Below, piece by piece: positions 6,880 to 8,456 of a stretch of DNA of 49,406 bases. Location: assembly GCA_022827885.1 (NCBI GenBank), contig JAJEIP010000097.1:1-49406 (forward strand). The letters are read 5' to 3'. The stretch is from Candidatus Poribacteria bacterium (lineage in GTDB: Bacteria > Poribacteria > WGA-4E > WGA-3G). Position numbers and translations under genes: made by a program. Each line of letters opens with the position of its first letter. Position 1 is the stretch's first letter. The notes beneath the pieces were generated by a model that saw only the letters and a program-made list of their open reading frames with translations, was not told where the DNA came from and ran no database searches.

Positions 6880-6897
6880 AAGGAGCAGGTGCCCTCT

Positions 6898-7106
6898 GTG
6901 GATATTAAAGGGACTTCTATAAAAAAAGCAAGCAAGATTTTAGTACACATCTCGTTCTTGTTGCTTTTAACGGTATCTGTCTTTTGGGAGCCCAAGTCGA
7001 ATACGGACTCTCAATAGATGTCCTCGGCTATCTCGTTGAAGTCGCGTCCGGGATGTCGCTCGATGCATTTTTCTCTGAGCGTATCTTCAAACCGCTTGGT
7101 GTCAAC
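6898..7106 (+). pseudogene. 5' remains of a beta-lactamase-fold serine hydrolase
   Basis: Two pieces of a class C beta-lactamase-like hydrolase remain. A signal-peptide-like leader starts at GTG 6898 (VDIKGTSIKKASK then a hydrophobic run) and ends at a TAG at 7015-7017. In another frame, about 6987-7106 encodes EYGLSIDVLGYLVEVASG...ERIFKPLGVN, the region of this family that contains the catalytic Tyr (Y-x-S) and the following helices. The part with the SxxK nucleophile is missing, so the gene is dead. The reading is cut at 7106 by the left end of the IsrB element, and the C-terminal end reappears beyond its right end. Confidence 0.7.
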
Positions 7107-7306
7107 TACCCTAAGCTAAAGCATAGGGCTTGTGCGAAGCATATACCAAAGGTTCACTCCACGAGTTAAACTGTTGACTACAGTAAAATATCGCATATCT
7201 CTGGCGTGGTAGCCAGTTCTATGTTTCAGATGCTCCCCAAGTCTGATTCCTCTTGGATACTGTGATCTGGATGGGGAAATATACACCCGAAAGGGGATTA
7301 CAAACG
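7101..7306 (+). ncRNA. Predicted omega RNA region of the IsrB element
   Basis: In IscB and IsrB systems the guide RNA is encoded directly upstream of the nuclease, with the guide at its 5' end taken from sequence flanking the element. Here about 200 nt of non-coding sequence separates the element end from the isrB ATG and is rich in short stems: CCCTA/TAGGG (7109-7128), GCTT/AAGC (7128-7140), CTGGC/GCCAG (7201-7216), CCAAG/CTTGG (7237-7256) and CCCC/GGGG closing around the last (7235-7276). The guide would be roughly the 16-20 nt ending at 7100. Boundaries are inferred from the family, not seen. Confidence 0.5.
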
Positions 7307-8345
7307 ATGTTTGTTATAGTCGTAGACCAAAACCAGAATCCACTGATGCCGACAAAGCCTTCGCGCGCAAAAAAGTGGATAAAATCACGGAAGGCAACAC
7401 CTTTTTGGCGAAATGGTGTGTTTTGTGTTCGTCTGAATGTGAGCCCTTCAGATGCTTACACGCAAGAGATTGCTGTGGGTGTAGACCCTGGTAGCAAAAA
7501 AGAGGGGTTTACCGTCAAAAGCGAAGCACACACCTATCTCAACGTACAAGCCGATGCCCATAACAAAGTCAGCAAAAAGATAGAAAAGCGTCGTGAGTTG
7601 CGGAGAAGTCGTCGGTCTCGGAAGTGTCCGAATCGAAAGAATAGGACGAACCGCCTTGCGAACCAAGCGCGCATCCCTGCTGGCACCCGCGCAAGATGGG
7701 ACTGGAAACTGCGTATCCTTGAGTGGTTCTCGAAACTCTATCCGATCACACACGTCTGTGTTGAGGACATCAAAGCCCGAACCCTCGAACGCGCAAGGCA
7801 GTGGAATCAATCGTTTAGTCCTTTGGAAGTCGGTAAGCAGTGGTTCTACGCTGAAATAGAAAAGCGTTGGAAACTGCTAACGCTGCAAGGATGGGAAACA
7901 AAGGAGCTACGCGATAGACTTGGACTCAAGAAGTCTCGCAAGAAGCTATCAGAAACGTTTGAGGCGCACTGTGTGGATAGTTGGTGTCTGGCACATCATA
8001 CTGTCGGTGGTTCTGATATACCCGATCATACGGGTATCTTCTGTATATCGCCAATCCTGATCCAGCGAAGGGGGTTACACAGAGAACAACCGAAAAAGGG
8101 TGGGATTCGTTCAAGGTATGGCGGAACAGTCTTGGGAAAGGGTCTGGTTAAGAACGTGCTTGTCAAGCATGTGAGGTATGGTTTCTCACGCCTGTCGGGT
8201 ATCAACGCGAAAGGTTTATTTGCTATCTATAGTCTTGATGGGAAACGCTTAACAACCAGTGCGAAGCAAACCAGCTTCAAAGTCCTCACACGGCTTAACT
8301 TTAACTATAGGATCGGGCATTCCTCCCCAACCTAAAGGATGGGCC
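7107..8345 (+). mobile_element. Non-autonomous IS200/IS605-like element carrying isrB
   Basis: The element is bounded by subterminal hairpins in the same orientation: CCCTA-N10-TAGGG at 7109-7128 (loop AGCTAAAGCA) and CCCA-N10-TGGG at 8326-8343 (loop ACCTAAAGGA), the latter preceded by the CATTCCTCCCC typical of IS200/IS605 ends. There are no inverted repeats or target duplication, as expected for HUH-transposase (TnpA) elements. Only isrB is present, with no tnpA, so movement would need TnpA in trans. It sits inside a degraded serine hydrolase gene immediately after GTCAAC (7101-7106), the same hexamer that adjoins the TnpB element. Exact cut sites are uncertain by several bases, and GTCAAC itself may belong to the element. 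Confidence 0.75.
7307..8335 (+). CDS. isrB: IsrB-type RNA-guided nickase (IscB relative lacking HNH)
   Basis: 342-aa protein. It starts with the PLMP domain (residues 12-15 PLMP, followed by PSRAKKWIKSRKA), then RuvC-I (VGVDPGSK, Asp60) and an arginine-rich bridge helix (about 90-116, KRRELRRSRRSRK). RuvC-II follows (HVCVEDIKAR, Glu153) and RuvC-III (FEAHCVDSWCLA, His221/Asp224), then a basic C-terminal domain. Only about 68 residues separate Glu153 from His221, so there is no HNH insertion. That, with the length near 350 aa, points to IsrB rather than IscB. Known IsrB proteins nick the non-target DNA strand guided by omega RNA. All RuvC residues are present, so it looks active. Start ATG 7307 has AAAGGGGAT upstream and puts the PLMP domain at the usual place; the in-frame codons from 7253 would lie in the RNA gene. 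The stop codon (8333-8335) lies within the loop of the right terminal hairpin. Confidence 0.85.
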   Translation: MFVIVVDQNQNPLMPTKPSRAKKWIKSRKATPFWRNGVFCVRLNVSPSDAYTQEIAVGVDPGSKKEGFTVKSEAHTYLNVQADAHNKVSKKIEKRRELRRSRRSRKCPNRKNRTNRLANQARIPAGTRARWDWKLRILEWFSKLYPITHVCVEDIKARTLERARQWNQSFSPLEVGKQWFYAEIEKRWKLLTLQGWETKELRDRLGLKKSRKKLSETFEAHCVDSWCLAHHTVGGSDIPDHTGIFCISPILIQRRGLHREQPKKGGIRSRYGGTVLGKGLVKNVLVKHVRYGFSRLSGINAKGLFAIYSLDGKRLTTSAKQTSFKVLTRLNFNYRIGHSSPT

Positions 8346-8351
8346 CCTGCC

Positions 8352-8456
8352 CGAAGATTGATGATTGGTATTTTCTTATGTCAATTGCATCCCAGTGGCG
8401 GCTTGGACCTCGGAGAGAAAATTCGCATCCTCACTTACCAAGCAATCGCCGATTAA
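8352..8456 (+). pseudogene. 3' remains of the interrupted serine hydrolase
   Basis: Directly right of the IsrB element the frame encodes IGIFLCQLHPSGG...EKIRILTYQAIAD and stops at 8454-8456. This is the characteristic C-terminal end of the beta-lactamase-fold hydrolase whose middle is found left of the element. The codons just before (8352-8364) would read P-E-D-L-M-I-G if one T were restored in GAAGATTGATG, so there is also a probable one-base frameshift. Roughly the central and late part of the gene, expected to be well over 100 codons, is missing between the two pieces. Confidence 0.65.

What the first reader, a model, noticed from the sequence alone, without database searches (positions are those of the whole stretch)
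7101..8345. Compact IsrB (HNH-less, PLMP + RuvC) RNA-guided nickase element with a structured upstream RNA region
The protein has PLMP, bridge helix and all three RuvC motifs (Asp60, Glu153, His221/Asp224) but no room for HNH, so it fits IsrB, a rarely annotated ancestor-type relative of IscB and Cas9. The roughly 200 nt before it carry at least five short stems, and the predicted guide can be read directly from the DNA left of 7101, which is sequence of the serine hydrolase gene. At 342 aa it is small, with all active residues present.
Basis: partly seen in the sequence, partly recalled or inferred. Interest (0 to 1): 0.75.

Follow-up and report, generated by a model that had tools for sequence, protein, structure and literature searches.

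The report
IsrB RNA-guided nickase mobile element
This is an intact 1.26-kb mobile element from a sponge-associated Poribacterium that encodes IsrB, a small RNA-guided DNA-nicking relative of Cas9, together with its structured guide RNA. It is a known kind of system, here multiplied throughout one bacterial genus and accompanied by ORF-less guide-RNA elements that carry an unexpected extra RNA domain resembling signal-recognition-particle RNA.

Summary
Observation and interpretation both hold. The ORF at 7307-8335 (342 aa) is an IsrB: DtIsrB (PDB 8dmb) is the top sequence hit (E 1.9e-33) and top fold hit (E 1.8e-22). RuvC residues D60, E153, H221 and D224 are invariant in 77 copies, with no HNH. 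The 206 nt upstream is a covarying omega RNA of eight helices plus two pseudoknots, starting exactly where the Rfam HEARO model places it (7101). Sixty-two copies in unrelated sites fix the left end at 7101 (GTCA[AG]). The right end is at about 8360, followed by ATGA (58), GTGA (8) or TTGA (1) in 67 copies. The 20 nt left of 7101 match the uninterrupted serine hydrolase gene of relatives at 17-19/20, next to ATGA; the occupied site lacks a TAM. The family is far from rare: 31 of 35 same-genus genomes carry it. Novelty: new member of a known kind. Two things go beyond the finding. Copies often sit exactly between a Shine-Dalgarno sequence and a start codon. ORF-less omega RNA elements, two in this genome, carry a conserved 3' domain with the SRP-RNA domain IV motif GTCAGGTC...GAAGCAGC. 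At the window site 447 bp of the host gene are missing at the insertion.

The parts
7101..8360 (+). whole IsrB element, left end GTCAA to right end ...CCCGAAGATTG (right edge certain to about 1-2 nt)
   Evidence: sharp end of similarity at both sides in 62 left and 67 right junctions at unrelated sites
7081..7100 (+). predicted 20-nt guide, from the left flank (serine hydrolase gene): GTATCTTCAAACCGCTTGGT
   Evidence: omega RNA starts at 7101; guide matches uninterrupted alleles of nine relatives 17-19/20, each followed by ATGA; its only near match in the own genome is its own locus, which lacks a TAM (GTCA)
7101..7306 (+). omega RNA scaffold (HEARO-type), group A pseudoknot topology
   Evidence: HEARO CM hit 7101-7358, 28.8 bits, E 3.3e-4, below gathering score 83; covariation
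7101..7178 (+). guide-adaptor part: P1 7101-7106/7173-7178, SL1 7109-7116/7121-7128, SL2 7129-7134/7160-7165 with inner 7139-7142/7150-7153
7145..7210 (+). pseudoknot 1: 7145-7148 (SL2 loop) with 7207-7210 (SL4 loop)
   Evidence: 95.9% paired; G-C to A-U swap in 25 sequences at one pair
7181..7269 (+). nexus: S2 7181-7183/7267-7269, S3 7190-7200/7256-7266, SL4 7203-7205/7212-7214, SL5 7226-7231/7241-7246
7235..7276 (+). pseudoknot 2: 7235-7239 (SL5 loop) with 7272-7276 (after S2)
   Evidence: 96% paired; A-U to U-A swap in 20 sequences at the closing pair
7307..8335 (+). IsrB, 342 aa: PLMP domain, RuvC-I D60, arginine-rich bridge helix (R95, R99), RuvC-II E153, RuvC-III H221/D224, C-terminal TAM-interacting domain (R314 aligns with DtIsrB R323)
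8325..8344 (+). right-end subterminal hairpin, approximate edges
   Evidence: conserved in all copies and shared, reverse-complemented, with the left end of IS605-type TnpA elements of the genus
8361..8364 (+). ATGA, target site and presumed TAM side of the uninterrupted site
   Evidence: ATGA 58, GTGA 8, TTGA 1 of 67 copies
6986..7100 (+). remnant of the interrupted serine hydrolase gene, 5' side
   Evidence: 82-87% identical to nine relatives, similarity ends at 7100
8361..8456 (+). remnant of the same gene, 3' side; 447 bp present in all nine relatives are missing between the two remnants

Best explanation
It is an intact IS200/IS605-superfamily element of the IsrB (HEARO-type) kind. Transcription entering from the left flank would yield an omega RNA whose 5' end is about 20 nt of flanking DNA (the guide), followed by the 206-nt scaffold. 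IsrB binds this RNA. The complex finds DNA that matches the guide next to an NTGA TAM and RuvC nicks the non-target strand; there is no HNH, so the target strand stays whole. The site matched is the uninterrupted allele of the insertion site. The occupied allele is spared because the guide match is followed by GTCA instead of NTGA. Nicking the uninterrupted allele would favour copying the element back or retaining it. The element has no transposase; movement would need a TnpA in trans. Shown here: protein family, catalytic residues, RNA structure, ends, target motif, guide/TAM relation, purifying selection. Inferred: transcription, nicking, retention, mobilisation in trans. The confidence given is for the identity; for the retention role it is about 0.6.
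For: IsrB by sequence: top PDB hit 8dmb, E 1.9e-33 over residues 5-317, ahead of every IscB; RRXRR 1.2e-32; the IscB equivalog model matches only the N-terminal half, below its cut-off. Fold: AF2 model (pLDDT 64) best matches 8dmb along the whole chain, E 1.8e-22. Active site invariant 77/77. Median dN/dS 0.10 over 33 pairs. Omega RNA: HEARO hit starting at 7101, strong covariation with both pseudoknots. Ends and [AG]TGA target. Clean uninterrupted sites for four sister copies, no duplication or loss. Guide matches uninterrupted alleles 17-19/20 with ATGA; no TAM-bearing copy in the own genome. DtIsrB nicks the non-target strand at NTGA TAMs (PMC9581776).
Against: No expression or activity data. 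Rfam HEARO score is below its gathering threshold. In the own genome no TnpA gene has matching ends, so the copy may be stranded. The 447-bp loss at this site does not follow from a simple insertion.
Confidence: 0.92

Rival explanations
1. A decayed IscB that lost its HNH domain, or an inactive remnant, rather than a true IsrB.
For: RRXRR/PLMP region is shared with IscB.
Against: Closest solved relative is IsrB, not IscB; all 77 full-length copies lack HNH and keep all RuvC residues; dN/dS about 0.1.
Confidence: 0.04
2. IsrB here acts mainly as an RNA-guided binder or regulator of the downstream genes at whose start codons many copies sit, not as a retention nickase.
For: 14 of 50 copies sit exactly between a Shine-Dalgarno sequence and a start codon, against 3.3% of control RTGA sites, p 7e-10; the guide then covers the translation start region of that gene.
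Against: RuvC catalytic residues are under strict conservation; the position follows from an [AG]TGA target plus selection against gene disruption; the window copy is inside a gene.
Confidence: 0.1
3. The 447-bp loss at the window site is an element-caused deletion, or recombination between two copies inserted at two ATGA sites of the same gene, so the present guide may not be the one acquired at insertion. This concerns the history of the site and can be true together with the best explanation.
For: All nine relatives have exactly 447 bp between the two flanks; an ATGA is at the left junction in all nine, and the right-hand site begins ATGA in six of nine.
Against: Four sister copies are clean insertions. 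At L054 a similar gap is explained by a 12-nt direct repeat, so deletion before insertion is possible here too. The gene has another deletion upstream, so decay is general.
Confidence: 0.35

Closest known systems
IsrB of Desulfovirgula thermocuniculi (DtIsrB, PDB 8dmb)
   Same: size (342 vs about 350 aa), PLMP-RuvC-bridge helix-TAM-interacting layout, HNH replaced by a short linker, omega RNA directly upstream, [AG]TGA target matching its NTGA TAM, TAM-reading Arg323 conserved as R314 in 44/45
   Different: about 28% identity; Gln326, which reads TAM position 4, is T317 here (T/Q/R across copies); phosphate-lock Asn265 is not conserved; omega RNA has the other pseudoknot topology and a shorter scaffold (about 206 vs 262 nt)
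Group A IsrB omega RNAs (CsIsrB, K2IsrB, BbIsrB; PMC9581776)
   Same: SL2-SL4 and SL5-(after S2) pseudoknots
   Different: direct sequence comparison not made; the present RNA has not been tested biochemically
Rfam HEARO (RF02033)
   Same: start, 5' hairpin and nexus line up over the full model; insertion upstream of ATGA or GTGA (the published preference is recalled, not checked)
   Different: 28.8 bits, below the gathering score of 83; HEARO is named for HNH-bearing ORFs, and there is no HNH here
IscB (OgeuIscB, 7xht and others)
   Same: PLMP/RRXRR, RuvC, omega RNA
   Different: IscB has an HNH domain; none here

Membership tests
IsrB | PLMP N-terminal domain | tested here: met
   LMP invariant in 77/77, RRXRR Pfam 1.2e-32
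IsrB | split RuvC with D, E, H..D | tested here: met
   D60, E153, H221, D224 invariant
IsrB | no HNH domain between RuvC-II and RuvC-III | tested here: met
   68 residues between E153 and H221, aligned end to end with DtIsrB; no HNH family hit
IsrB | closest to IsrB rather than IscB | tested here: met
   8dmb first in sequence and fold searches; no full tree was built
IsrB | upstream omega RNA with two pseudoknots | tested here: met
IsrB | NTGA-type target motif on the right flank | tested here: met
   67/67 NTGA, 66 of them [AG]TGA; the right junctions were found with a pattern that mostly required NTGA, so the stronger evidence is the unfiltered alignment
IsrB | RNA-guided nicking of the non-target strand | not testable with these tools
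   needs biochemistry
HEARO (Rfam RF02033) | score above gathering threshold | tested here: not met
   28.8 vs 83 bits, E 3.3e-4 in a 451-nt search
IscB | HNH domain and NCBIfam IscB cut-off | tested here: not met
   94.4 vs 175 bits, N-terminal half only
IS200/IS605 superfamily element | subterminal hairpins, fixed tetranucleotide at one end, no target duplication | tested here: met
IS200/IS605 superfamily element | own TnpA | tested here: not met
   no TnpA in the element; own-genome TnpA loci do not share its ends; TnpA elements in sister genomes share the right-end hairpin. Elements without tnpA are common in this superfamily.

The most novel reading that the evidence does not exclude
The window element is the protein-coding half of a two-part system. 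ORF-less omega RNA elements (about 405-575 bp, same ends and ATGA target) live off its IsrB in trans, and they replaced the IsrB gene with an RNA domain that mimics domain IV of the host signal recognition particle RNA (invariant CAGG/AGCA loop). This could recruit Ffh or ribosomes to capture nascent IsrB or TnpA, a bacterial parallel to Alu elements and 7SL RNA.
Probability: 0.2. Interest if true: 0.85.

Novelty: new member of a known kind. Interest (0 to 1): 0.5.

Why it matters
It gives a deep natural data set (211 matches, fragments included, in 31 same-genus genomes) for IsrB, the HNH-less relative thought to precede IscB and Cas9: covarying omega RNA, target motif, uninterrupted alleles, and likely transposase partners in sister genomes. 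It makes testable what a nickase that cannot cut both strands does for a mobile element. The ORF-less partners with an SRP-like domain, if functional, would be a new kind of omega RNA.

Tried and rejected
First ORF coordinates (7308) were out of frame. Rfam at gathering threshold finds nothing in the window; the HEARO signal needs the permissive search. Single-sequence folding is weak evidence (z -1.74). TnpA partner in the own genome: rejected, ends do not match. Literature: nothing held links Poribacteria with IscB, and nothing relevant links HEARO or IscB with SRP RNA; the HEARO-ATGA search returned only unrelated papers, and the HEARO and OMEGA discovery papers are not held, so the known ATGA/GTGA preference of HEARO is from memory. 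An SRP family match on the ORF-less elements: Rfam gives none at E 0.5 or better; the resemblance rests on the motif and its pairing.

Full report
What is there. The window is contig C53 of a 5.1-Mb genome; its closest named relatives are Candidatus Poribacteria metagenome-assembled genomes. The ORF 7307-8335 encodes 342 aa. Pfam gives RRXRR at 1.2e-32. The NCBIfam IscB model matches only residues 3-156, below its cut-off. Against solved structures the first hit is IsrB of Desulfovirgula thermocuniculi (8dmb, E 1.9e-33, residues 5-317), far ahead of IscBs. The AlphaFold2 model from 45 copies is moderate (pLDDT 64), but Foldseek ranks 8dmb first along the whole chain (E 1.8e-22), then IscBs and RuvC. 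No HNH domain is hidden: 68 residues separate E153 from H221, and they align with the DtIsrB linker region.

Is it functional. Across 77 distinct full-length copies D60, E153, H221 and D224 are invariant, as is the LMP of PLMP. Bridge-helix R95 and R99, which align with DtIsrB R100 and R104, are invariant in 45. R314 aligns with the TAM-reading R323 of DtIsrB and is kept in 44 of 45; the Q326 position is T here and mostly T/Q/R in the family. Median dN/dS is 0.10. The window copy has no stop or frameshift.

The RNA. Rfam at default thresholds is silent. A permissive scan of 6950-7400 gives HEARO over its full model, starting exactly at 7101 (28.8 bits, E 3.3e-4, gathering score 83). Fifty-five copies were aligned. 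RNAalifold already finds compensatory change in 19 of 35 pairs. A covariation scan adds two pseudoknots. The complete 56-pair structure has 93.6% paired cells and 312 double-change cells, against a mean of 93 in shuffles and at most 75 when partners are slid. Because the structure was partly derived from this alignment, the slid control favours it; the size of the gap does not rest on that alone. The pseudoknots join the SL2 loop to the SL4 loop and the SL5 loop to the strand after S2. That is the group A topology of PMC9581776, not the group B topology of DtIsrB.

Ends and target. The second copy in the same genome (80% protein identity) aligns from 7101 to the right end and not beyond. Sixty-two left junctions begin GTCA[AG] in all but two and have unrelated flanks. 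Sixty-seven right junctions are followed by ATGA (58), GTGA (8) or TTGA (1). That tally used a pattern that mostly required an NTGA; the unfiltered alignment of right ends shows the same motif, with rare exceptions such as ATGG or TTGACGA. Four sister copies have uninterrupted homologous sites in other genomes with no duplication and no loss at the junction. The element is therefore 7101 to about 8360. This fits IS200/IS605-type insertion next to a fixed tetranucleotide.

Guide logic. The left flank is a serine hydrolase gene. Nine relatives carry it without the element, and the 20 nt left of 7101 match them at 17-19 of 20, each followed by ATGA. In the own genome the only match within three mismatches is the element's own left junction, followed by GTCA, which is not a TAM. 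So the predicted complex would attack the uninterrupted allele and spare the occupied one.

An oddity at this site. In all nine relatives exactly 447 bp lie between the positions of the two flanks. They are missing here. The left-hand site is ATGA in all nine; the right-hand site begins ATGA in six. The gene is broken further upstream too (its signal peptide is joined to the later EYGLSID segment; read). Deletion before insertion, recombination between two copies, or an element-caused deletion are all open. If the deletion followed insertion, the present guide is not the original one.

Spread and mobility. Thirty-one of 35 same-genus genomes have matches, 1 to 22 each, 211 in all including fragments; outside the genus they are few. 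No TnpA is in the element, and the four Y1 transposase loci of the own genome lack its ends. In sister genomes IS605-type elements with TnpA, and what reads as a TnpB start downstream, have a left end that resembles the reverse complement of the IsrB right end (terminal CTAATCTTC or CAAATTCTTC plus hairpin). They are the likely source of transposase, unproven; the base next to that end differs (TTAT against TCAT). In L139/L047 an IsrB element sits at the start codon of such a tnpA.

Start codons. Of 50 copies with both flanks read, 14 lie exactly between a Shine-Dalgarno-like sequence and a start codon opening a frame of at least 60 codons, against 3.3% of control RTGA sites (p 7e-10). The control does not correct for gene density or for selection against insertions within genes.

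ORF-less relatives. A covariance model of the scaffold finds four omega RNAs in the own genome but only two IsrB genes. The two extra ones (C65, C97), and others in sister genomes, share the left end; in 21 of 27 the right end was also found, all 21 before ATGA, with element length 405-575 bp and 27 distinct left flanks. Standalone omega RNAs are known for IscB (PMC9581776). What is unusual is what replaces the ORF: a 153-nt domain found in 19 of 35 genus genomes, 46 matches, and in a few genomes of a sister genus. Of 30 copies parsed, 27 have GTCAGGTC and 27 have GAAGCAGC, with covarying helices on both sides. The host SRP RNA reads CGTCAGGTC-CGGAAG-GAAGCAGCG. So both strands of the SRP domain IV loop are there, with the tetraloop stem replaced by a longer hairpin. 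Rfam SRP models do not reach it. I treat this as a strong motif resemblance whose function is unknown.

Verdict. The finding is right and its object is a new member of a known kind. Interest lies in the scale of the family, the clean natural experiment it offers, and the SRP-like ORF-less partners.

Noticed in passing
L177 365-880 (G000:C65), L178 380-880 (G000:C97); also L173, L179-L185, L189-L218: ORF-less omega RNA elements (about 405-575 bp where both ends were found) with the same ends and ATGA target as the IsrB element, carrying a conserved 153-nt 3' domain with the SRP-RNA domain IV loop motif GTCAGGTC...GAAGCAGC in place of the IsrB gene; 46 matches in 19 of 35 genus genomes.
   Followed up: partly
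window 7100/8361: Exactly 447 bp of the host serine hydrolase gene, present in nine relatives between an ATGA and a second site that is ATGA in most of them, are missing where the element sits.
   Followed up: partly
67 element copies, e.g. L041, L068, L102, L088: Elements often sit exactly between the Shine-Dalgarno sequence and the ATG(A) start codon of a gene (14 of 50 vs 3.3% of control sites).
   Followed up: partly
L139 190-1456: An IsrB element is inserted at the start codon of the tnpA of an IS605-type element.
   Followed up: partly
L140, L158, L159: IS605-type TnpA (with apparent TnpB) elements of the genus have a left end that resembles the reverse complement of the IsrB right end, which makes them candidate helpers.
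   Followed up: partly
window 6890-7100: Upstream part of the same serine hydrolase has a second deletion: a signal-peptide-like segment is joined to the EYGLSID region.
   Followed up: no
A1 columns 80-81 (window 7176-7177): About half of the omega RNAs have TT instead of GA in the 3' strand of P1, breaking two of its six pairs; the two forms are mixed across the family.
   Followed up: no
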